From positions 1 through 50,930 of the forward strand of contig JAIBBN010000019.1 in the NCBI GenBank assembly GCA_019694655.1: DNA of 50,930 bases. The letters run 5' to 3'. A program made the position numbers and the translations under genes. Source of the stretch: Leptospirales bacterium. Its GTDB lineage: Bacteria > Spirochaetota > Leptospiria > Leptospirales > Leptonemataceae. The notes beneath the pieces are model-generated. The model did no database searches. It saw only the letters and a list, made by a program, of their open reading frames with translations, and was not told the origin of the DNA. How positions within the stretch are numbered: position 1 is the first letter of the stretch; each line of letters starts with the position of its first letter. Below are positions 21,606 to 50,930 of the stretch, piece by piece.

Positions 21606-22031
21606 ATGCCGCGCAATCCCGAATCTCAAAAGCAAAAAGAAGCGAACGCTATCGATCAACAGTCGGCGGCGCTTGCCGCCCGCCGCAAACTGGCCATGGA
21701 GATTATCGATTTTCTGGACGAGAAGAAGGTCATGGACCTGCTCGCCATTGATCTGGAGGGAGTGAACCCCTACTTTGGCATCTTCTTAATTGGTACGGCA
21801 GGTTCTCAAGTTCAGCTCAAATCGCTGGTTCGCGAATTCAGTCGGCGATTTGCCGAGCAGATTCCGCGTGGAATGAACGTGCGTCCCGCCGATTTCGCCT
21901 CCGGCTGGGTGATCCTCGACTTGATTGACGTTGTCGTACATCTATTTCTGCCCGAACAACGCGAGTTCTACAATCTGGAACGCCTGTGGGGCGACGGCAA
22001 GACGCTGCGCGACGAGCGACGCCGCCTCTAA
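21606..22031 (+). CDS. rsfS: Ribosome silencing factor RsfS
   Basis: 141 aa. The RsfS/DUF143 domain is complete: FLDEKKVMDLLAIDLEGV, FGIFLIGTAGSQVQLKSL, SGWVILDLIDVVVHLF and EQREFYNLERLWG. It binds L14 and blocks subunit joining when nutrients fall. About 25 extra charged residues precede the domain. Last gene of the plus-strand block that begins upstream with nadD. Confidence 0.95.
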   Translation: MPRNPESQKQKEANAIDQQSAALAARRKLAMEIIDFLDEKKVMDLLAIDLEGVNPYFGIFLIGTAGSQVQLKSLVREFSRRFAEQIPRGMNVRPADFASGWVILDLIDVVVHLFLPEQREFYNLERLWGDGKTLRDERRRL

Positions 22032-22076
22032 GAGCGCGTCCCCAAACCCCATCTGTGGAGTTTTGGGACCGGCTCT
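22031..22076. terminator. Long hairpin between convergent genes, possible bidirectional terminator
   Basis: AGAGC (22031-22035) pairs with GCTCT (22072-22076), and inside it GTCCC-c-AAAC (22038-22047) pairs with GTTT-t-GGGAC (22060-22069). It begins at the rsfS stop and lies between rsfS and a convergent gene. There is no T-run on either side, so intrinsic termination is only suggested. Confidence 0.45.
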
Positions 22077-22084
22077 AATTCGCC

Positions 22085-22118
22085 GCAGGGACTTGCGGCA
22101 GGGACTTGCGGCAGGGAC
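22085..22118. repeat. Short tandem repeat, 13-bp unit
   Basis: Unit GCAGGGACTTGCG occurs twice in full (22085-22097, 22098-22110), followed by the first eight bases of a third. Non-coding, just beyond the hairpin after rsfS. Such a repeat can change length by slippage. Confidence 0.7.
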
Positions 22119-22122
22119 AGCG

Positions 22123-22599
22123 CTACTCTGCGCTAACAGCCTGCGTTGACCGTTGCCAGGGCGGCGCCAGAGGGTGAGTCGCGCTCAGTAGATTCCAAAC
22201 CCCGGCCAGAGCTAGCAACAGCCCGATCCCGGAGACGATCCCAAGCGCAAACGCCCCCTCTCCGCCGGAGCTGCGAGCAGCTATGATCATTCCCAGAAGC
22301 CAGGCCGCGCCCAGCAGGCACAGGCCAAGCGCGTGCACAATAAGCAGAATCGCCCCTGGTCGGCGCTGGCGCAGAATGATGCCCAGCGTACCACACAACG
22401 CCAGTGCCAGCAGCACGCCCGAGGCGGCGGCAATTGCAGAGACGGGCGGTAAATTTTGCATCGCCGGCGAGGCGCCCTGGGCGCTGAGCAGGCGAGCCAG
22501 CAAGATGATCAGGGCAATGAGCGCCATAAGGCCGCTGCTGCCAGCGGTAATGCCAATACAGAGTTTCCAGGCGAGTCTCATCCGGCGATCAGGGTCCAC
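22123..22599 (-). CDS. Small integral membrane protein, unknown
   Basis: 158 aa if the GTG at 22599 is used; an ATG at 22581 (MRLAWKLC) is equally plausible because neither has a clear ribosome site. Four hydrophobic segments, roughly residues 15-38, 52-74, 82-105 and 117-140, with short loops and a basic N-terminus. No family recognised. Composition and codon use look like the neighbours. Convergent with rsfS. Confidence 0.6.
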   Translation of the reverse strand: MDPDRRMRLAWKLCIGITAGSSGLMALIALIILLARLLSAQGASPAMQNLPPVSAIAAASGVLLALALCGTLGIILRQRRPGAILLIVHALGLCLLGAAWLLGMIIAARSSGGEGAFALGIVSGIGLLLALAGVWNLLSATHPLAPPWQRSTQAVSAE

Positions 22600-22729
22600 A
22601 AGACACGGGAACGACGGTGCGCCGCGGCGGCCAGCGAAATGCGCCGCAGCTTCGCCGCAAAAGGAATAGCGGCCGTGGCCATAGAGGAAACTCTGGCCTC
22701 GAGCCGTTCCATGAGCGGTCAGTGCAACT

Positions 22730-23782
22730 ATGATAACTGCAGAACTGGAGCGCGCCGTCCAGGCAGCGCTGGAAACGATCGAACACCCCGGCTATAAGCG
22801 CAGCCTTGCCGACCTTGGCATGTACGGCGGATTGAGCGCCGACGGCGAAAGCCTGCGCCTGCTGCTACGCAGCCCCGACGCTGATAAGAAAGCTCAGATT
22901 GCGCTTGAGGCGCAGGTGCGCAAGGCGCTTTCACCCGTGGAACTGCCGGCCAAGCTCAAGATCCGCTTTGAAGTTGATGAGAGCCTGAAGCCGGGAGACG
23001 ATGGCAATCGAATCCGGGGCGTAAAGAACCTGATCGCGGTGGGCTCGGGCAAAGGCGGCGTTGGCAAGAGCACCGTTGCTGCCAATCTCGCGGCGGCCAT
23101 GGCGCTGCGCGGCCTGCGCGTTGGTTTGATCGATGCGGACATCTATGGCCCGTCGCTGGGACGCATGTTTGGACTGCAGGGGAAGATTCCGCTGCATGGC
23201 GATGGGAAGAATCGTATCTTTCCGGTGGAAGCGCATGGCGTAAAGCTGGTCTCCTTCAGTTTCATGCTGGAGAATGATCAGGCTGTTATCTGGCGCGGTC
23301 CGATGCTGGGCAAGGCCGTGGAACAATTTCTGTTTCAGGTCAATTGGGGCGAGCTCGACTACCTGATCATAGATCTGCCGCCAGGAACGGGCGATGTGCA
23401 GCTTTCGCTGGCGCAACTGGTTGAGGTGGATGGCGCCGTGATTGTCACCACGCCTCAGAATGTGGCGCTGCAGGACGCCAGCCGCGCCATCCGTATGTTC
23501 ATGGATGTTAAGATGCCGATTCTGGGCGTCATCGAGAATATGTCGGAGTTTATCTGTCCGGAATGCGGACATGTATCGCATATCTTTTCGCGCAATGGCG
23601 GCGAGTCTATAGCAGCGAAGTACAGCGCCCCCCTGCTGGGAAACATTCCAATTACAGAAGCAATCATGCAGTCCGGCGAAGAAGGCGTTCCGCTGGCGGC
23701 AGCGCTCAAAGAAGGTCCGATGGTAGAGGCCTACTTTCAAGTCATCGATCGTCTGGCCGTCGAAATTGAGAAGTACCGCTAG
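22730..23782 (+). CDS. Mrp/ApbC-family Fe-S carrier ATPase
   Basis: 350 aa. An N-terminal DUF59/MIP18-like domain (about 1-85) is followed by a deviant Walker A GSGKGGVGKST (105-115), DADIYGPSLGRMFG, and a switch block DYLIIDLPPGTGDVQL. The CPEC pair near residue 275 is the site that holds a bridging Fe-S cluster in the dimer. It delivers clusters to apoproteins in the cytosol. The DUF59 domain, however, has no cysteine, unlike SufT-type versions. Confidence 0.92.
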   Translation: MITAELERAVQAALETIEHPGYKRSLADLGMYGGLSADGESLRLLLRSPDADKKAQIALEAQVRKALSPVELPAKLKIRFEVDESLKPGDDGNRIRGVKNLIAVGSGKGGVGKSTVAANLAAAMALRGLRVGLIDADIYGPSLGRMFGLQGKIPLHGDGKNRIFPVEAHGVKLVSFSFMLENDQAVIWRGPMLGKAVEQFLFQVNWGELDYLIIDLPPGTGDVQLSLAQLVEVDGAVIVTTPQNVALQDASRAIRMFMDVKMPILGVIENMSEFICPECGHVSHIFSRNGGESIAAKYSAPLLGNIPITEAIMQSGEEGVPLAAALKEGPMVEAYFQVIDRLAVEIEKYR

Positions 23783-37949: not shown

Positions 37950-38086
37950 CTCTTCAGACAGGACTCAAGGGCGCCTGCCTTGCTTGCGACAATTTTCTGC
38001 GATTCACTGCGTACTGGCCGCAGGAGGGGTCAAAGGGCGACGGCGGCGTGATTGCGAACGCTTTGGCAGGGAGTCGTCGGGGTCTG

Positions 38087-38240
38087 CAGGCATTTCACGG
38101 CGAAATCCCCGATCGCCACCGGTTCTCCGCCAGAATAGTCGAAGCTCGGGCGCTCCGCATTGCCGCGAATCGAAACTTCGACTGCAAGGTCTGTAAATCC
38201 GGTGAGATTTCCGCCCTCACCGCCCCATTGCCGGAATAGA
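38087..38240 (+). pseudogene. Relic: 3' end of integrase-type transposase
   Basis: About 154 bp nearly identical to the last part of the transposase gene at 39661-40471, from GCAGGCATTTCA to the stop. The translation ends with the ANRNFDCKVCKSGEIS motif. The 5' part is missing. The 140 bp before it, upstream of the lipoprotein at 37949, hold nothing recognisable. Confidence 0.85.
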
Positions 38241-38782: not shown

Positions 38783-39660
38783 CTACAAACCTGGATCTAG
38801 CCATCTACCGCTGCCAGGCGGCCGCTCCACAAGGCGTAGGCCCTTGGCTCTCCAATGTTGATAGATTTCTCGCTGACGCAAGCTACTCCCGCCGGCTTCA
38901 TTGTTAAACACTGAACTTGCTGGATGCCGGCCTGAGACATTGTGTTCGACGCGGGGTATCTCATCAATCACTCCACCGTCGCGCAGAGGCAATTGATGCC
39001 GGTGGTGTGGTGCAAGCCCGCTATGGCCACCCCTGCCTTCCAAGAATTCAGCCCGCTGCGCTGCAGTGAAAGGTCCGGGCGCTACTTTCGGCGGTCGCGA
39101 CATTGGTGGATCGAGTGAGTTGAACCTATGTCCCTCAGGCGCGCATACTGGCTCACCGCGGTAATTGAACTGGTTGCCGGTTGGCACGCTGGCCGTCGGC
39201 CTGACCCCCGCATGCGCCTGCTGCTGTTGCACTGGCTGCGGCTGCGTTGGCGGCCGCGGCGTGCTTCCATTGGGGACCGGCGGTCGGCTTTCCGCCGTCC
39301 CTCCGCGGAGTTCGGCAGCGAGCGCCTGCTCTGTGCTGGCTGGGCCCGATCGCATTGCGGCGGCGCGCGCCGCAGATTCTTCAAGCGTATTGGCTGCAGC
39401 CCCGGACATTGCCGAAGGAGTAGCTGCTGCCTCGCGGAGCACGCCGCGAACAATAGCGCCATAGGCTTGCTACATATGGCAATACGAGCCAGCTCCACGG
39501 ACAGCTGGAAGTTCGCAGAGCCCTCGATCATCGTGTTATGGATGTAGGCGTCCCGACGCAGGCCCGCCTCCGGTCCAGTTCCAAAGCTTTCCAGCTTCTC
39601 GCGCAGACGGTTCGCTGAGTCTTCGCTGATCAAGCGAGCGCCATCCTCGTATTGCTGGCA
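38783..39660 (-). pseudogene. Polymorphic toxin C-terminal module D (HNH-like), broken
   Basis: The reading frame enters from the right at 39660 (CQQYEDGARLISED), continues to SVELARIAICSKP, then must shift frame between about 39455 and 39470 to continue as YGAIVRGVLREAAATPSAM. After a Pro/Gln-rich linker comes a nuclease-like end: GLAPHHRHQLPLRDGG, then EIYQHWRAKGLRLV, with paired His as in HNH/ENDO VII toxins. The 5' side is cut by a transposon fragment at 39661, and no Hint domain remains. Without both repairs no full toxin is made. The nuclease assignment is by motif only. Confidence 0.65.
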
Positions 39661-40471
39661 GGCGATTGTGCGCTACGCGCACAATCCACAATTCAAGTGC
39701 TGGCCGCTCATTTCCATCTACTTCCAGATGCTGGAAGATGGCGCTCTCTACTGCGGAAAATCCGCCTTCTACCGTCTCTGTCGCGCACTCGGTCTTTCCC
39801 GGGTATTCAGGAGCTTCCGTCGCAAGCATCCAATCGGAATTCGAGCAGAATCGCCGGGTCAAATCCTGCATGCCGATGGCACCCGCATCTTTATTGGCGA
39901 TCATCGCATGGTGCATGTGCATGTCCTGATGGACAACTTCTCCAGATGCATTCTGGCTGCTGTGGCCAGCTTCTCGGCATCCGCCGTACTCTGGCGCTCG
40001 ATCCTCGAAGGCGTTCTGGACCGCCATGCAGCGATTCTCGCTTCGCCTCTTGATCTCATCGTCGACAACGGTTCCGAAAACAAAGGTGATGTCGTCGCAC
40101 TGGCCGACAGCGCTCCCGATCGTGTTCGTCGGCTGGTCGCGCAGAAGGACATCACCTTCTCGAACTCGATGGCCGAAGCCATAAATCGAATGCTGAAAGG
40201 GCAGTACATTCAAGGGCGCGTCTTCACAACCCTGGCTGGACTCCAGGAAGCCATTGATGATGCGGTTAAGGACTACAATAACCGTTGCCACGGATCCCTT
40301 CACGGCACGCGACCTCTGCAGGCATTTCAAGGCGAAATCCCCGATCGCCACCGCTTCGCTGCCAGAATAGTCGAAGCTCGGGCGCTCCGCATTGCCGCGA
40401 ATCGAAACTTCGACTGCAAGGTCTGTAAATCCGGTGAGATTTCCGCAGTCACCGCCCCATTGCCGGAATAG
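39661..40471 (+). pseudogene. DDE integrase-type transposase, 5'-truncated
   Basis: The open frame gives 267 aa from a GTG at 39668, but about 100 N-terminal residues including the helix-turn-helix are missing relative to the family. The catalytic core is present: LHADGT, a second Asp in IVDNGSENKG and the Glu in NSMAEAINRMLKGQY. The end NRNFDCKVC matches the Cys-containing tail of a family I know from myxobacteria and Leptospira as integrase-catalytic transposases. The left boundary joins toxin D directly. Stop at 40471, then the hairpin and right-end repeat. Confidence 0.8.
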
Positions 40472-40530: not shown

Positions 40531-40610
40531 TTGAGTTACCCCTGGTCATACTCTTGAAATACCGTACGCATTTGCGTACGATCTCCCTGCAACTCGGCGT
40601 GGACGGTGCC
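40531..40610. repeat. Transposon right-end repeat, copy 2
   Basis: Palindrome CGTACGCATTTGCGTACG at 40563-40580, ending GGCGTGGACGGTGCC at 40610. An IS481-type fragment follows at once. Copy 3 on the other side of that fragment has the same orientation. Confidence 0.8.
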
Positions 40611-40873
40611 GTGTGCGATATTGAGCATCGTAAAACAAAAGTTCGCCGGCCACAAACAAATGGATTCGTCGAGCGTTTCAATCGCACAGTTCTCGATGAA
40701 TTTTTCCGCCCGGCCTTCCGAAAGAAGATGTATACAAGCGTCGGGCAGCTGCAGCGAGACCTGAACAAATGGATCCAGTTCTACAACTACGAACGCCCCC
40801 ACCGCGGGTATCGCAACATGGGCAAAAGGCCTGCAGATACCATGGGAGTGTTAGACATGAAGGTTAGCTGAAC
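40609..40873 (+). pseudogene. IS481-type transposase, C-terminal fragment
   Basis: About 87 codons of an IS481-type DDE transposase: EHRKTKVRRPQTNGFVERFN (with the catalytic Glu), TVLDEFFRPAFRKKMYTS, FYNYERPHRGYRNMG, stop TGA at 40871-40873. The 5' two thirds are missing; the frame starts in the right-end repeat by chance (TTG at 40554). It is bracketed by two direct copies of the right-end repeat. Bases 40748-40874 are identical to the reverse complement of 50804-50930. Confidence 0.85.
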
Positions 40874-40936
40874 ATCTTAAGAAAGCGTACGCATTTGCGT
40901 ACGGTATCCTTGCAACTCGGCGTGGACGGTGCCCGG
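40874..40936. repeat. Transposon right-end repeat, copy 3
   Basis: Palindrome CGTACGCATTTGCGTACG at 40886-40903, ending CGTGGACGGTGCCCGG at 40936. Same orientation as copy 2, with the IS481 fragment between them. Confidence 0.8.
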
Positions 40937-41726: not shown

Positions 41727-43067
41727 CTACTGCATCCTTTGAGCAGCGGGAATTGGGTCAACCCACTTTATATCTCCAGCCCTTGCTCCGAGGATGCGCC
41801 GAAACTCCGCAAGTTTAGCGTTCATTTCGGATGCCGTCTGGCTTCTGCTGCGAACTTCAAGAATGTCGATTTTCCCATCTTGCCTGATTCTGTAGGCATC
41901 CGGCCTGAGCGTAGTCAACCGCTGCCCATTCGCATCGACAAGCTCTTGATTGAAACGAACATGCTGGGAGGCCGGATCGTTCTGCCATGCGCGCGCCTGA
42001 TTAAAGGCCGTCGCATCATGAGCTGGGCTTCCGTGTACCGGGCGGGTTGAATCAATAGGCAGTGCGCGAGTTCCGGCACTCGCCGCCGGCTCGGCGGGTC
42101 TAACCCCATTTGCCTGCGCTGGCTGCACATCCGGTGCAGGCCGTTCAACATTGACAGGCGAGGATGTTGCGTACTCCGAATTTGCGGCAATGCTTTATGA
42201 AGCCGATGGGCCGGATGACGTCGATTGTCCGCCAAGGGCGTACTCGCGATTTGCGGCGCGACCGGCTGCAGCCGCTTCTTCGGCGGCAATCACACCTACT
42301 GTCGGAGCTGCACCAGATCTGGCGAAGGCGCCGCCTCCGCGATGCGTCAGCGCATTTAAGACCGCAAGTCCCAGAACTGTATTCCTGGAATTGTCGCTAT
42401 AACGACTGCCAATCCCATCGGAGATTCCAAGTAGCGCCGCCTGGTCCAAACTCGATAGCAGACCGCTCATTTCAGTCACTGTTTGCCGCAATGCTTCCTC
42501 AAAGTTCGCACCCTGGAGCATCAATGAATGAATGCGCGGGTACATGAGTTCCCGGCCCATTATCTGCATCATCTGGTAGCGTTCCAGACCTGCTGCTCCG
42601 TAGGTGTCCCGGATTTCAGCATCTGAGAAGCTTTGTCCGGTGAATGCGAGGAGCGCGGTGCGGTATATATTCTGATTATGCATTAGCGCCGCATCACGGC
42701 CCACGAAATACGTGTGGTTATCCTGCACCTCGAAGTTGTAGACCGTTTCGTAACGGGCCTCGGCGTTCACGCCGGAGATCAGCTGCTGGCCTCCGCTGGC
42801 CAGAAGACTCACATCGCCAGCGCGCAGCTGTTTGGCTTGTACCCAGCCTTCGCCCTCTACGTAGAACACGTGATTGAATGTGGTCTCAAATTCAGCGCCG
42901 TTGGAATAGTGGGCGCGATAGATGCGGTCCGTCTGGCGAACGAAGGTCTGGACCACTCGCTTGGGTTCTACGGCCTGTGTCTGCTCATTGTATGAGAGAA
43001 CGATATCTCCGGGAACAATCTCCTGGATTTCCTTGAACCAGCGGCCGTTGTGGTACTCCGCGCCGTC
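41727..43067 (-). pseudogene. Hint-toxin module A with in-frame stop codon
   Basis: The frame enters at 43067 from repeat R2 (DGAEYHNGRWFKEIQEIVPG), gives most of a Hint domain (RVVQTFVRQTDRIYRAHYSN, FETTFNHVFYV, and the cleavage end ALMHNQ), then a 130-residue linker. TAA at 42195-42197 interrupts it. In the same frame, after the stop, follow a Pro/Ala-rich stretch and a nuclease-like end: TTLRPDAYRIRQDGKIDILE with EVRSRSQT, a D...E-x-R pattern like PDDEXK toxins. The Hint nucleophile segment (N-T-C-F-V-A-G-T in modules B and C) is absent. So it is both 5'-truncated and split. Confidence 0.75.
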
Positions 43068-43378
43068 GGCGCTTCAGAGTCCCCTGGCAGGCGACACGGG
43101 CGTCCATGCCCGAGTCGCCTGCACACGCGACCTCCATGGTCGCGTGCGAGCAGGGGACTCTTCCGCGCTAGGCTCAGGCCAGACTATCGTTCTGGTCGCG
43201 ATTTCCGGAAGCGAGCCAGGGTCTCGCTTCCGGAGGCGCGTTGCGCCGGTATTTGTCTGGGCGGCCGCCGCTCGATGCTTGTGATATATACAGCTTCCTG
43301 ACCTCGCTTAGCGCCCGGTCAGTCCTGCGTACGGGTCTTGCTGCGCTTGCGCTTGCAATGTTGCGCATCCCTGCCGCT
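43068..43378. repeat. Structured repeat R2, copy A
   Basis: 311 bp, shares its first part (GGCGCTTCAGAGTCCCCTGG onward) with copies B and C at near identity. The outer stem AGAGTCCCCTG/CAGGGGACTCT encloses two hairpins. The CCGGAAGCGAG/CTCGCTTCCGG hairpin is conserved. About 100 bp present in B and C near the right side is missing. It meets the module A toxin at a GAC-GGC codon pair. Confidence 0.85.
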
Positions 43379-43399
43379 TAAATGAAGTCTGGAACGGCG

Positions 43400-43530
43400 C
43401 CATCGCCGATCCTCACCATTTCTCCGTAAGATTATAGAAATCACGCGCTGCGCTGGTGGCTGCCAACCAGCAGACCGACTGCCGGTCCTGCAAGGCCGGT
43501 GAGATGTCGCCGCCAATGGTTGAAGCTTAA
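43400..43530 (+). pseudogene. Degenerate relic of the integrase-type transposase 3' end
   Basis: Translation IADPHHFSVRL-stop-KSRAALVAANQQTD, then CRSCKAGEMS, aligns codon for codon with IPDRHRFAARIVEARALRIAANRNFD and CKVCKSGEIS of the better copy. Highly diverged with one internal stop, so much older than the copy at 38.1 kb. It follows R2 copy A after about 20 bp. Confidence 0.75.
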
Positions 43531-43620
43531 CATGACTTCCTGCAGACGCTTCCCGCATGAGGGCGGGACGCGGTTTCATCGCCTCGCCCTCTCTCACAGT
43601 GACCCTGTATGACACTGTGG

Positions 43621-43676
43621 CCGTAGTGTCCGCATTTGCGAACGCTCTTCCCTGGAGTCGTCGTGGACGCTGCAGG
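43621..43676. repeat. Transposon right-end repeat, copy 4 (degenerate)
   Basis: GTGTCCGCATTTGCGAACG and TCGTCGTGGACGCTGC correspond to the palindrome and the end of copies 1-3, with several substitutions. It directly abuts the immunity pseudogene. Confidence 0.65.
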
Positions 43677-44687: not shown

Positions 44688-46706
44688 TCAGTAATGTGTG
44701 GCAAATCCAAACTCCTTTGCAAGCGTATCTCCAAATCGCAGTACATCATCGGCTGAATTCCCTCCCTCACGGAAGAATCTCTCCCAGCGCCGATTGTATT
44801 CGACGGCGTGCCGTAAATGGTCTGTTTTTTCCCACCACGTTGCAAAACGCGGATCATGAATGGAGAGCCCACTTTCTTGAAATATTCTCTCAAATTTGTC
44901 TGCAAATTTTTCGGGGAAAATATGATGGGCGTGCGAGTTGGCGGGATTGCGACCGGTCAGCCGCGCCAGATTTTCACGAATGTTGTTGTAAGTAAACTGT
45001 AAAAATCTTCTGCCGCCAGCAAGGTTGGGAAGCGGTCTGAGGGTGGCGACGCGTCCTCCAGTCAGAAGCGTGCGCAGATACCGCAGCTTTGAAAGAGCGC
45101 CCTCAACGCCTTCCGGTCCGCCGGCGACGATTTCTAAGCCCATCTCCGCGAGCGAATAATGCAGCCTTCCCTGCTCGACGGCGCTCAAGTCCTCGTAGTG
45201 CAATAGCTGTTGTTCCAGCTCATCCAGTTTTTCTCTGACTGGATCAACGCCTGTAAGGTGACCAAGAAGTCCAGTAGTCGAACTAACCGCCCCACAGGCT
45301 AAATTCAAGACTATTGCGCAGAGGACGATTCTCGCGTACTGTGCGACAATTGACTTGCCGTAGTCATCCTCATTATGCACCAGCACACCCGCTTCGGAGA
45401 CGAAGTAATTGTGATGCTTCTCTACCTCGAAGTTGTAGACCGTCTCGTAGCGCGGGTCGATCTCCACGCTCGAGATCATCAGGCCCTGGCCGGCGGCGGT
45501 TTCGCCGACGTCGCCCGCACGCAGATAGCGCGCCTCGATCCAGCCCTTGCCGCGCACATAGAAGGGATGCGACCATGTCGTCTCGATCAGCGTCCCGTCT
45601 TCGTAGCGGATCTGGTAGATCCGGTCCGCGGAGCGGATGAAGGTCTGCTGCACGCGGGAGTAGAGCAGCTCGCCGGAGTCTTCGTCTTTGGCAAGCACCA
45701 GATCCCCGGGAACAATGTCCTCGACCACTTTGTAGTAGTGGCCGCCCTGGAATCTGGCGCCGGGCGTGCTGTGGTGCACGCGAACGAGAGTCCCCGCCAC
45801 AAAGCACGTATTCTGTCGCCACTCGCCGGTCTCCGGATCGATGTAGCCGTCGTCGTCGGAGTATTTGTTGAAAAATGCCCAGTCGGCAAAATCGCTCACG
45901 CCGCCGGTGATCTTATCCCAGATGGAGTCGCGCGTCTGGCCAAGCTCCGGCGCCAGAGCCATCAGCTCTTCGTCGGTCGGTGCACGACCGTTTTCCGCCG
46001 CAAAGGCCGCTATCTTCTCCTCCTGCAGCTGCAGGCCTACGTCGTGCATTGCCGCAGAAAGCTTCTCGGGGTCTTTCAGCAGATCGGCCAGCTCCTCATC
46101 GGTCATCTCGCCGCGCAGACTCTCCAGAGTTGCACGGTGGGACAGCAGCCAGTTCACCTTTGTGTTCAGATTGCTGGCCGAGGCCGAACGCGTTTGATAC
46201 TCCTCGTCAGAGATGCGCCCCTCTTTGTGCAGCCTTTTCAGATTCTGGTGAACCTGCGCCCAGGTCTGCCAGGTGGTCGAGGTCGTGATATTGTTGCTTA
46301 CGCCTTCGAATCCGCCGTCTGCATTCCAGTTAAAGGTATGCGAAAAGTCCGTTCCCACTCCGGACAGACCGCTGGAGAGCAGACTGTTGGACCCAACGCT
46401 GTTGTTCAGACTCAGGCCAAAGCTGTTGTCCGCATTCCAGGAAAGTCCCACTCCCGTCGTGTAGTTGTTGGCGAAGTGCTCCTGACCCAGGAAGCCTCCG
46501 GGACCGTAATCGATGTCAAATTCTCGAGACAGCGAGTAGTTCAGATCAAAGCCGGCATAGCGGCCATCCGCTCCAAAACGCAGACCGGCGCTGGCCGTTT
46601 GATCCCATGAATCCTGTAGCCCCTGTCTCAGGTTTCCGCCGATGCTGGCGCCGGCAAAATTGCCGCTGCCATCGAAACTCAGGCCCAGATTTGCGCCCCA
46701 ACCATC
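44688..46706 (-). CDS. Hint-domain polymorphic toxin, module B (5'-truncated)
   Basis: The frame is open from R2 copy B at 46706 to 44688 (672 codons); a GTG at 46451 would give 587 aa. Upstream of it are Gly/Asn-rich beta repeats (DGWGANLGLSFDGSGNFAG, DGRYAGFDLNYSLSREFDID) like those of very large Leptospira surface proteins. In 46451 numbering: helical region 65-180, Hint domain 215-360 with nucleophile C216, TTWSHPF with H295 and terminal VLVHN at 356-360; then a toxin end with a hydrophobic segment (about 368-390) and the nuclease-like AHHIFPEKF near 500 with later WEKTDHLRHAVEYNRRW (AHH-type HNH). The least damaged toxin here, but with no proper start or secretion signal. Confidence 0.75.
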   Translation of the reverse strand, partial: DGWGANLGLSFDGSGNFAGASIGGNLRQGLQDSWDQTASAGLRFGADGRYAGFDLNYSLSREFDIDYGPGGFLGQEHFANNYTTGVGLSWNADNSFGLSLNNSVGSNSLLSSGLSGVGTDFSHTFNWNADGGFEGVSNNITTSTTWQTWAQVHQNLKRLHKEGRISDEEYQTRSASASNLNTKVNWLLSHRATLESLRGEMTDEELADLLKDPEKLSAAMHDVGLQLQEEKIAAFAAENGRAPTDEELMALAPELGQTRDSIWDKITGGVSDFADWAFFNKYSDDDGYIDPETGEWRQNTCFVAGTLVRVHHSTPGARFQGGHYYKVVEDIVPGDLVLAKDEDSGELLYSRVQQTFIRSADRIYQIRYEDGTLIETTWSHPFYVRGKGWIEARYLRAGDVGETAAGQGLMISSVEIDPRYETVYNFEVEKHHNYFVSEAGVLVHNEDDYGKSIVAQYARIVLCAIVLNLACGAVSSTTGLLGHLTGVDPVREKLDELEQQLLHYEDLSAVEQGRLHYSLAEMGLEIVAGGPEGVEGALSKLRYLRTLLTGGRVATLRPLPNLAGGRRFLQFTYNNIRENLARLTGRNPANSHAHHIFPEKFADKFERIFQESGLSIHDPRFATWWEKTDHLRHAVEYNRRWERFFREGGNSADDVLRFGDTLAKEFGFATHY

Positions 46707-47122
46707 GGCGCTTCAGAGTCCCCTGGCAGGCGACACGGGCGTCCATGCCCGAGTCGCCTGCACACGCGACCTCCATGGTCGCGTGCGAGCAGGGGACTCT
46801 TGCGCGCTAGGCTCAGGCCAGACTATCGTTCTGGCCTTCCTCCCGGAAGCGAGCCAGGGTCTCGCTTCCGGCGGCGCGTTGCGCCGGCCATTCTCTGGGC
46901 GGCCGCCGCTCGATGCTTGTGATATATATATATCTTCCGGGCCTCGCTATTCGCTCGGCCAGCGGCGCCGGGCTGCTGCGCACTCCGCTCTCGCTTCGGC
47001 CCCGCAGGCGGAGATTTCAGGTAAGACAGTCATGTCTGGTACAGCGCTCTCGGCCCCGGTAATCTCGCCTGCGGGTCTTGCGGCGCTCGCGCTTGCAATG
47101 CTGCGCATCCCTGCCGCGGAAG
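46707..47122. repeat. Structured repeat R2, copy B
   Basis: 416 bp. Outer stem 46715-46725/46790-46800; hairpin 1 at 46726-46761 (GCAGGCGAC/GTCGCCTGC with inner CGGGC/GCCCG); hairpin 2 at 46763-46785 (CACGCGACC/GGTCGCGTG); hairpin 3 at 46815-46837 (AGGCCAGA/TCTGGCCT); hairpin 4 at 46843-46871 (CCGGAAGCGAG/CTCGCTTCCGG); hairpin 5 at 46872-46886 (CGGCGC/GCGCCG). An AT repeat (ATATATATAT) follows near 46922. Open frames through it have no protein-like features. Confidence 0.88.
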
Positions 47123-47245
47123 CGTGGCTGCCAATTTTAGATTCCGCAGCCGTCTGCGGAATTGCCTGTTCTCCCGAATTGATTTGCCACGGTCGGAGGC
47201 TATTCGTATCCCGCATGCGAACCCTCTCTGGCTGGACTATAGGGA

Positions 47246-47348
47246 GCCATCAATGATGCGGTCGCTGACTGCAATTTCAGGGCAACTCCGGCCGATCGCA
47301 GGCCGGTTCTCCGTCAGAATTGTAGAATCGCGCGCCCTTTGCAGTTAG
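47246..47348 (+). pseudogene. Degenerate relic of the integrase-type transposase
   Basis: AINDAVADCN, then after a deletion AISGQLRPIAGRFSVRIVES and RALCS-stop, match AIDDAVKDYN and AFQGEIPDRHRFAARIVEA of the better copy. It follows R2 copy B after about 125 bp in which I recognise nothing. Confidence 0.7.
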
Positions 47349-47349
47349 C

Positions 47350-47415
47350 CGCGGTCATACTTTTGAAAAAACGTGTCCGCTTACGTACTGTCTCGCATCC
47401 CGTCGTGGACGCTGC
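47350..47415. repeat. Transposon right-end repeat, copy 5 (degenerate)
   Basis: GCGGTCATACTTTTGAAAAA and CGTGTCCGCTTACGTACTG, then CGTCGTGGACGCTGC, match the order of copies 1-3. It ends 75 bp from the stop of immunity C. Confidence 0.65.
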
Positions 47416-47489
47416 AATACGCAGTTGTGAAAGCTTTGACATGGAATCGTCGTTACCGCTGAACCGCCAATTCCGCAGGAATTTGCCAA

Positions 47490-48254: not shown

Positions 48255-49526
48255 TTTTGTACCCTTATATAAGGCTGCATCTCTACCCGAATCGGGTCGA
48301 ACACGGCTATCCTTCCACCGCTTCGTAGAATTTTCTGCTCCAGAATTCGACTCAATACCGCTCGCGGACTGACAATCAAGTGAAAAGGTTTGCCTAGCCG
48401 TTCAGCAGCAGAAATTTCAGCCTCCAACTGTGCGGTGAGCCCCAAATTCTGCACATCTTTGATTTCGCCAACAGCATTTTCAAGATAGTCCGGAATAACA
48501 CGTACGACCCCCGCGCCGCGTATTGCCGAATAGAGCTTCGCTAGTGTTTGGCGAAGCGCCAAGTGCCTTTAGAGCTGCAGCTTCAAACACTCGACCGCGT
48601 AAATTATTGATGATTCCAACTTCCGAACTACTTTGAGCGCTCCGGCCAGCAATGAGCAGTCGCTTCCACAACTGCCCGAGCATTCTACTATCTGCTGAGA
48701 GTAGCTTTTGCCGAATGAGTGCAGCCTCCTCCGCAGTGACGGCCCCTGACCCGTTAAGATAGGCGTCGCCGCCCAATAGAGAGACAAAGAATGCCGTAAC
48801 CTCAACATGGGATTGTAACCAAGTTGTGTAGGCAGCTGCACAGCCTCCTTCAAAGCACGTCGCAAGCGTTACAACCCCGACCCCTCCCGCGATACTGCCA
48901 GCAAGTTCGCCCAGTCCCCGGGCCATTCCAGCAGCCCGCAGCTGCGCCATGTATTCCGGATTGTCGCATCCATTCTCCACCCGCCCGACGATTCGTGATA
49001 TGCCACAAAGCAGATCTGGGGCGGCCGCAGGTGGAACATAAGTCTGATTGTGCACCAGCACCGTATCACGGCCCACGAAATACGTGTGGTTGTCCTGGAC
49101 CTCGAAGTTGTAGACTGTCTCGTAGCGGGCCTCGCCGTTTACGCCGGCGATCGTCTGCTCAGCGCCGTTTGCGGTAATGCTCACATCTCCGGGACGCAGC
49201 TGCTTCGCCTGCACCCAGCCTTCGCCCTTTACATAGAACTCGTGATTGAATGTAGTCTCAAATTCCGCGCCGTTGCTGTAGCGGACATGGTAGATGCGGT
49301 CCGTCTGACGCACAAAGGTCTGGACCACTCGTTTGGGTTCAACGGTATGTGTGGACTCGTTGTATGAGAGGACAATGTCGCCGGGAATAATCTCCTGGAT
49401 CTCCTTGAACCAGGCCCCGTTCTCATAGCGGGCGCCATCGGTGCTCGCATCCACCAGCACCAGCGTCCCCGCCACAAAGCAGGTATTCTGTCGCCACTCG
49501 CCGGTCTCCGGATCGATGTAGCCATC
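48251..49526 (-). pseudogene. Hint-toxin module C (Tox-REase-7-like) with frameshift at a G run
   Basis: The frame enters from R2 copy C at 49526 (DGYIDPETGEWRQNTCFVAG), with the Hint nucleophile Cys present, TTFNHEFYV and the terminal VLVHNQ. A 180-residue linker with a hydrophobic stretch follows. The frame ends at 48480 after FGNTRRGGRTCYSGLS. In the other frame the sequence goes on as VRVIPDYLENAV, GEIKDVQNLGLTAQLEAEIS and FHLIVSPRAVLS, a PDDEXK nuclease (D...E-x-K) like Tox-REase-7. Removing one base from the five-G run (C run 48508-48512 on the plus strand) rejoins them as FGNTRRGVVRVIPDYL. No native start is present. Confidence 0.78.
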
Positions 49527-49942
49527 GGCGCTTCAGAGTCCCCTGGCAGGCGACACGGGCGTCCATGCCCGAGTCGCCTGCACACGCGACCTCCATGGTC
49601 GCGTGCGAGCAGGGGACTCTTGCGCGCTAGGCTCAGGCCAGACTATCGTTCTGGCCTTCCTCCCGGAAGCGAGCCAGGGTCTCGCTTCCGGCGGCGCGTT
49701 GCGCCGGTCATTCTCAGGGCGGCCGCCGCTCGATGCTTGTGATATATACAGCTTCCTGGCCTCGCTTAGCGCTCGGCCAGCGGCGCCGGGCTGCTGCGCA
49801 CTCCGCTCTCGCTTCGGCCCCGCGCGCAGAGCACTCTGAAATTACTTTGTGATAATCCAGAATCTCCCCTGCGCCTGGTCAGTCCTGCGTGCGGGTCTTG
49901 CTGCGCTGGCGCTTGCAATGCTGCGCATCCCTGCCGCGGAAG
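49527..49942. repeat. Structured repeat R2, copy C
   Basis: 416 bp, nearly identical to copy B over the first 190 bp, with the same set of stems. The middle differs (GATATATACAGC instead of the longer AT repeat, and a distinct 60-bp stretch near 49830-49880). It meets module C at a GAT-GGC codon pair. Confidence 0.88.
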
Positions 49943-49949
49943 TGCGGTC

Positions 49950-50086
49950 ATAAACGCCATGGCCGAAGCCGCCAACCGCAGCGGGCAGCCGCATGGTCAG
50001 CTTCACGGTCTGTCGCCGCATGAATCTACGGCGGCTAATGATCCTCAAGAGCTGGCCGCGCTTGTCGATGCGGCCTTGAGTTGCTG
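49950..50086 (+). pseudogene. Probable relic of the integrase-type transposase
   Basis: INAMAEAANRSGQPHGQLHG resembles SNSMAEAINRMLKGQYIQG of the better copy around its catalytic Glu; the rest, to TGA at 50084-50086, is poorly matched. It starts about 8 bp after R2 copy C. Weaker than the other relics. Confidence 0.45.
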
Positions 50087-50787: not shown

Positions 50788-50806
50788 CCGTACGAACCTC
50801 ATCTGT

Positions 50807-50930
50807 TCAGCTAACCTTCATGTCTAACACTCCCATGGTATCTGCAGGCCTTTTGCCCATGTTGCGATACCCGCGGTGGGGGCGTTCGTAGTTGTAGAAC
50901 TGGATCCATTTGTTCAGGTCTCGCTGCAGC
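50807..50930 (-). pseudogene. IS481-type transposase C-terminal end, continues beyond window
   Basis: Reads FYNYERPHRGYRNMGKRPAD and ends DMKVS-stop, identical to the fragment at 40609-40873. Positions 50804-50930 equal the reverse complement of 40748-40874 over 127 bp. The 5' part is outside the window, so it may be a complete IS there. Confidence 0.85.

What the first reader, a model, noticed from the sequence alone, without database searches (positions are those of the whole stretch)
46707..47415. R2 and transposase relics form one composite unit, with the R2 side best conserved
Each R2 is followed, on the plus strand, by a relic of the same transposase gene (at 43400, 47246, 49950) with different deletion points; a right-end palindromic repeat follows in intervals A and B (43621, 47350), but none is seen after copy C. 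So R2 may be the left region of that element. However the transposase parts are heavily decayed while R2 is near identical between copies. Either R2 moves or is copied on its own, or it is kept by selection or gene conversion.
Basis: partly seen in the sequence, partly recalled or inferred. Interest (0 to 1): 0.62.

Follow-up and report, generated by a model that had tools for sequence, protein, structure and literature searches.

The report
Structured repeat between polymorphic-toxin modules
R2 is a 300-410-base DNA repeat that can fold into conserved hairpins; it forms the left part of a bacterial jumping gene here, but its 3' half belongs to an apparently undescribed repeat family that also occurs alone in related bacteria, and copies often mark the joints between interchangeable toxin modules.

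Summary
R2 (A 43070-43377, B 46709-47117, C 49529-49937) is followed by transposase relics in all three copies; A and B also have a right-end motif, C has none. Three more copies lie elsewhere in the genome. One (C25:21277-21577) precedes an intact 429-aa IS3/IS481-like rve transposase, so R2 is the left region of that element in this lineage. A and C9 share one deletion junction, so R2, relic and right end behaved as one unit, like a non-autonomous IS derivative. The conserved block stops at R2's last helix. R2 is mosaic between copies and better conserved than the relics (A/C9 87% against 74%).

The new point is that R2's 3' half belongs to a structured repeat family absent from Rfam. A covariance model built without copies A, B, C, C9 and C1a finds B and C as the only window hits, and 73 matches in 25 of 150 genomes, mostly without this IS. 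In G032 two IS-free copies sit at toxin-module joints, as here. R2's 5' domain keeps a three-way junction while its stems are rewritten. Homogenisation between copies plus selection on structure is the favoured explanation; a role in module exchange is inferred, not shown.

The parts
46709..47117 (+). R2 copy B, whole structured repeat
   Evidence: the left limit is where homology to the toxin paralogue stops; the right limit is the P1' helix strand, where identity between copies collapses
46715..46800 (+). 5' domain of R2-B: three-way junction with an 11-bp outer stem and two arms
   Evidence: z about -9 as RNA and DNA; same fold with rewritten stems in copy C25
46816..46886 (+). three conserved hairpins of R2-B (46816-46836, 46843-46871, 46872-46886)
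46897..47117 (+). core of R2-B: P1, conserved stretch 46968-47002, variable P3 stem about 47000-47074, box ATCCCT 47107-47112, P1' 47113-47117
   Evidence: R1 match 46960-47117, E 0.0077 in the window
43070..43377 (+). R2 copy A, with an internal deletion removing most of the core centre and P3
49529..49937 (+). R2 copy C, with the other P3 stem type
   Evidence: R1 match E 0.0022 in the window
43366..43509 (+). transposase C-terminal relic after R2-A
   Evidence: 37 bits; best of 20 shuffles 24.3
47225..47339 (+). transposase C-terminal relic after R2-B (two collinear pieces)
   Evidence: E 4.9e-4
49980..50051 (+). transposase relic after R2-C, best match to the G006-type transposase
   Evidence: 28.5 bits, E 0.004
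43620..43674 (+). right-end motif of unit A (GTCCGCATTTGCGAACGC then TCGTCGTGGACGCTGCA)
47370..47416 (+). right-end motif of unit B (degenerate palindrome, then CCGTCGTGGACGCTGCA)
   Evidence: compared
42195..43062 (-). truncated toxin fragment with PT-HINT, abutting R2-A
44688..46706 (-). truncated toxin fragment with PT-HINT, abutting R2-B
48480..49526 (-). truncated toxin fragment with PT-HINT, abutting R2-C

Best explanation
R2 is a structured DNA (possibly RNA) repeat of about 410 nt in its full copies. Its 5' domain is a three-way junction plus three hairpins. Its 3' core (helices P1, P2, P3 around the conserved stretch TCGGGCTgCTnCGgrCTcCGCTtCGCTtCGGyC and the box ATCCCT) belongs to a dispersed intergenic repeat family of spirochaetes. 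In this Leptospiraceae lineage the repeat became the left part of an IS3/IS481-like rve insertion sequence. Units A, B and C1a, and A's relative C9, are internally deleted, MITE-like derivatives that keep R2 and the right end; C is a remnant of another subfamily without a right end. R2 stays similar while the rest decays because copies exchange sequence with each other and because the fold is under constraint. Most copies sit where a toxin fragment of the next polymorphic-toxin module begins, after the immunity-type gene of the previous module, so they probably act as shared homology blocks or breakpoints when modules are gained or reshuffled. Shown: anatomy, membership of the repeat family, left-end position in the intact copy, mosaicism, helix covariation, location at module joints in two families. 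Inferred: mobilisation in trans, gene conversion as the mechanism, a role in module exchange.
For: Intact copy: R2 homologue then 429-aa transposase then right end at C25. G006 and G011 transposases also have the element upstream. A and C9 share a deletion junction; A/C9 identity 87% in R2 (214/245) against 74% in relic plus right end (211/285). Mosaic: B equals C over the 5' 250 nt but has the P3 stem of C9. The conserved block ends at P1' in all copies. Family: 17 pattern hits in 10 of 393 genomes, none with the reversed pattern. P1 pairing 18/20 against a shuffled mean of 5.1, maximum 12 in 20,000. 95.5% of cells paired, 12 of 17 pairs with double changes. Model R1, built without R2 copies A, B, C, C9 or C1a, finds only R2-B and R2-C in the window and 73 matches in 25 of 150 genomes. 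The three-way-junction fold is kept in C25 with rewritten stems. In G032 two IS-free copies lie 3.2 kb apart at the starts of two toxin fragments that share a homologous upstream region.
Against: No target-site duplication and no clear terminal inverted repeat were seen, so transposition of the unit is not demonstrated. The genome is one MAG with six copies. In training R1 I trimmed the P2 and P3 loops and picked P3 by eye, so only P1 has an unbiased test; C25 is one of the 13 training sequences. The model scores of B and C are modest (20-23 bits). Most family copies elsewhere lie between housekeeping genes, so location at toxin modules is not a general property. Arm-templated repair of palindromes could also create compensatory stems without selection.
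Confidence: 0.62

Rival explanations
1. R2 is nothing more than the ordinary left end of an insertion sequence; its structure serves transposase binding or blocks incoming transcription, and its similarity reflects recent transposition.
For: R2 lies upstream of the transposase in every copy that is not truncated on the left in G000, G006 and G011; the A and C9 units share a deletion junction.
Against: The core occurs without this IS in most of 25 genomes; 410 nt is far longer than usual IS ends; recent transposition would carry relic and R2 together at equal divergence, but A/C9 differ 13% against 26%; more distant transposase relatives lack it.
Confidence: 0.2
2. R2 is a dispersed structured repeat that merely happened to lie beside the site where this IS inserted; the pairing with the transposase is coincidental and inherited.
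For: Same repeat family stands alone in many genomes; next to a Leptospira mayottensis plasmid copy of the transposase the element lies on the right side, not the left; an IS5-type gene lies beside a G006 copy.
Against: All six G000 copies, with different flanks, carry IS sequence or a right end on the same side, and A and C9 share one deletion junction; two other genera show the same left-side order.
Confidence: 0.15
3. The compensatory stem changes come from templated repair between palindrome arms (template switching), not from selection on structure.
For: The stems are near-perfect inverted repeats, in which such repair is established from general knowledge; arm sequence changes wholesale between copies.
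Against: P1 is only 5-7 bp with its strands far apart, yet covaries across genera; the hairpin loops and the core stretch are conserved as well.
Confidence: 0.25

Closest known systems
IS3 and IS481 families of insertion sequences
   Same: rve (DDE) integrase-core transposase of similar length and order; NCBIfam best matches are transpos_IS3 (71.5 bits) and transpos_IS481 (71.1 bits).
   Different: Both scores are far below the curated cut-offs (160 and 224); no TG..CA inverted ends or target duplication found; left region is 410 nt of hairpins.
REP / BIME / MITE-type dispersed palindromic repeats
   Same: Short, structured, mostly intergenic, several copies per genome, no coding capacity, found with and without a transposase.
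   Different: Defined core with three covarying helices and long exchangeable stems; no RAYT (REP-associated tyrosine transposase) link was seen or tested; not in Rfam.
rhs orphan modules of enterobacteria with H-rpt (ISAs1-type) sequences
   Same: Displaced toxin C-termini with immunity-type genes in tandem, IS material at the module joints (known from general knowledge; orphan Rhs selection is reported in PMC3967940, title and abstract seen).
   Different: Different toxin family (PT-HINT, GH-E nuclease), different IS, and a structured repeat at the joint that also occurs without IS in G032.
Integron attC sites
   Same: Structure conserved more than sequence, placed between exchangeable modules.
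   Different: No RYYYAAC...GTTRRRY core sites; where P1 is GCGTT/AACGC the order is reversed; G000 has no integron integrase above the curated cut-off.

Membership tests
IS3 / IS481 insertion sequences | transposase above the curated family cut-off | tested here: not met
   71.5 of 160 bits and 71.1 of 224 bits
IS3 / IS481 insertion sequences | rve integrase core | tested here: met
   PF00665, PF13683, PF13333 matches at E 2.6e-5 to 4e-4, slightly below the Pfam cut-offs
IS3 / IS481 insertion sequences | terminal inverted repeats and target-site duplication | tested here: inconclusive
   ends compared by eye for A, C1a and C25: no inverted repeat or duplication seen; sites may be rearranged
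spirochaetal structured repeat family defined here (model R1) | covariance-model match | tested here: met
   R2-C E 0.0022, R2-B E 0.0077, the only matches up to E 10 in the window; A, B, C, C9 and C1a were not in the training set (C25 was)
spirochaetal structured repeat family defined here (model R1) | P1 helix between the 5' start of the core and the bases after ATCCCT | tested here: met
   18 of 20 elements pair, shuffled mean 5.1, maximum 12; R2-B pairs GCGGC/GCCGC
known Rfam RNA families | match to any of 4227 models | tested here: not met
   none over the window or R2-bearing loci; only a Bacillaceae-1 RNA nested in the L153 element
integron attC sites | RYYYAAC / GTTRRRY core sites and an integron integrase in the genome | tested here: not met
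   no such core sites in R2 by inspection; no G000 match over the TIGR02249 cut-off
REP/RAYT system | a RAYT gene in the genome that acts on the repeat | not tested
   no RAYT search was made
polymorphic toxin loci with orphan modules | tandem truncated toxin C-termini, each with an immunity-type gene | tested here: met
   PT-HINT in A, B and C; GH-E nuclease at C25; the immunity-type genes are assigned by position only

The most novel reading that the evidence does not exclude
The repeat is an active recombination site: its long stems extrude or fold as single strands and are cut or exchanged by a dedicated enzyme, so that toxin-immunity modules are gained, lost and reordered at R2, with or without the insertion sequence.
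Probability: 0.12. Interest if true: 0.8.

Novelty: new variant of a known kind. Interest (0 to 1): 0.5.

Why it matters
A covarying structured repeat that is not in Rfam, is scattered through Spirochaetota and recurs at the joints of polymorphic-toxin modules in two families would give a concrete handle on how toxin-immunity modules are exchanged. It also shows an IS whose left part is a long repeat with interchangeable stems, which bears on how non-autonomous elements keep their ends.

Tried and rejected
attC-like site: rejected, no core sites and no integron integrase over the cut-off. One G057 copy lies next to an integron integrase gene but between convergent genes, so taken as coincidence. 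Known RNA family: none. R2 in plasmids or phages by DNA similarity: no match. Literature searches, by motif letters and by topic, found no description of the repeat; the library holds only open-licence papers. Empty-site test: the genes flanking a G020 copy lie on different contigs with different neighbours in three sister genomes, so it is uninformative. Promoter or terminator in R2: no consensus match. A target preference was considered: four of five left junctions read CCRTY before GG (A, B, C, C25; C1a does not), and comparison with paralogues shows these bases belong to the toxin gene in A and C. This is suggestive, counted by eye on few sites, and would explain the constant orientation; it is not claimed as shown.

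Full report
WHAT IS THERE. The window is the whole contig C19 of a 3.9-Mb draft genome (G000) whose close relatives are Leptospirales/Leptospiraceae MAGs. R2 occurs three times in direct orientation in the window and three more times elsewhere: C9:5111-5474, C1:617485-617915, and C25:21277-21577, where direct DNA similarity is limited to about 100 nt but the architecture is the same.

THE TRANSPOSON. At C25 the R2 homologue is followed by an intact 429-aa transposase (21966-23252) and a right end (CGTACGCAAATGCGTACGG ... CCTGCAACTCGTCGTGGACGCAGCC). The protein has an rve core and lies between IS3 and IS481, below both curated cut-offs. Relics A (43366-43509) and B (47225-47339) match its C-terminus; relic C (49980-50051) matches another stretch and scores best with the G006 transposase; the best of 20 shuffled controls was 24.3 bits. 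Related transposases (about 32%) in G006 and G011 also have an element of the R2 kind upstream. Relatives in G008, Leptospira mayottensis and other spirochaetes showed none upstream. So R2 is the left region of this IS within one sublineage.

ONE UNIT. A and C9 join R2 to the same point of the transposase C-terminus and both continue to the right end, at different places in the genome. R2, relic and right end therefore descended together as one internally deleted unit. B and C1a carry other deletions; C has no right end.

CONSERVATION. Over comparable positions A and C9 are 87% identical in R2 (214/245) and 74% in relic plus right end (211/285). B and C are 97% identical over the first 250 nt, and the junction domain is identical in A, B and C. 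Identity collapses right after the last helix strand (ATCCCT-GCCGC). The copies are mosaics: B has the 5' part of C but the P3 stem of C9 (48/48, then 50/50), while C has the stem type of C1a (42/50). Exchange between copies is the simplest reading.

STRUCTURE. The first 90 nt fold as a three-way junction (z about -9 as RNA and as DNA). In C25 the outer stem AGAGTCCCCTG/CAGGGGACTCT has become AGCACACACTG/CAGTGTGTGCT and one arm is rewritten too, with pairing kept, while the hairpins downstream are nearly unchanged. C1a has a further compensatory change.

A WIDER FAMILY. A motif in R2's 3' half led to stand-alone elements in other spirochaetes: 17 hits in 10 of 393 genomes, none with the reversed pattern. 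They share P1, P2, a conserved stretch, a variable P3 stem, ATCCCT and P1'. For P1, 18 of 20 elements pair by a fixed rule, against a shuffled mean of 5.1 and a maximum of 12 in 20,000 shuffles. On a trimmed alignment of 13 elements 95.5% of cells pair and 12 of 17 pairs show double changes; the trimming and the choice of P3 were mine, so this second test is not unbiased. The model R1, which includes C25 but none of A, B, C, C9 or C1a, finds R2-B and R2-C as the only hits in the window and 73 matches in 25 of 150 genomes, up to 13 per genome. A similar element lies in a viral contig of unknown host. No Rfam family covers it.

WHERE IT SITS. In the window every R2 abuts a truncated minus-strand toxin fragment with PT-HINT. 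The toxin fragments start at different points of the gene, so the junctions are not one inherited insertion. In G032, a different family, two IS-free copies lie 3.2 kb apart, each at the start of a toxin fragment; the two fragments share 40% identity over about 190 residues. Most other stand-alone copies lie between housekeeping genes, so toxin joints are a recurrent, not an exclusive, site.

HOW IT MAY WORK. Established here: R2 as left region of an IS, membership of a repeat family, covarying P1, mosaicism, position at module joints. Inferred: the deleted units are mobilised in trans by the intact transposase; copies are homogenised by recombination; R2 supplies homology or breakpoints for module exchange.

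Noticed in passing
window 40610-40874 and 50804-50930: C-terminal piece of an IS3/IS481-like transposase between two right-end-like palindromes (40552-40610, 40875-40933); an identical inverted 127-nt stretch forms the contig's end, so the contig probably breaks in a repeated IS.
   Followed up: partly
window 38063-38236 and 39659-40468: Further partial copies of the C25-type transposase without R2, both with the full right end.
   Followed up: partly
G000:C25 17480-17700 and 23340-23440 (in L090): The right-end motif CCTGCAACTCGTCGTGGACGCAGCC is repeated in tandem next to two transposase copies, as if ends accumulated there.
   Followed up: no
L127 (Leptospira mayottensis plasmid NZ_CP024873.1), 6001-7224 and 7423-7541: A homologous transposase without annotated feature, followed by a family element and then a hypothetical gene and an RHS gene.
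   Followed up: partly
L153, 270-335: A Bacillaceae-1 RNA (RF01690, 54 bits) lies inside a family element, between its GCGCAT and CCCTCACGC boxes.
   Followed up: no
L138, about 1560-1900: An IS5-type transposase gene directly follows a G006 copy of the element, which lacks its 3' end.
   Followed up: no
L136 / G057:C77 6508-7705: A full integron integrase gene (358 bits to TIGR02249) lies beside a family element.
   Followed up: partly
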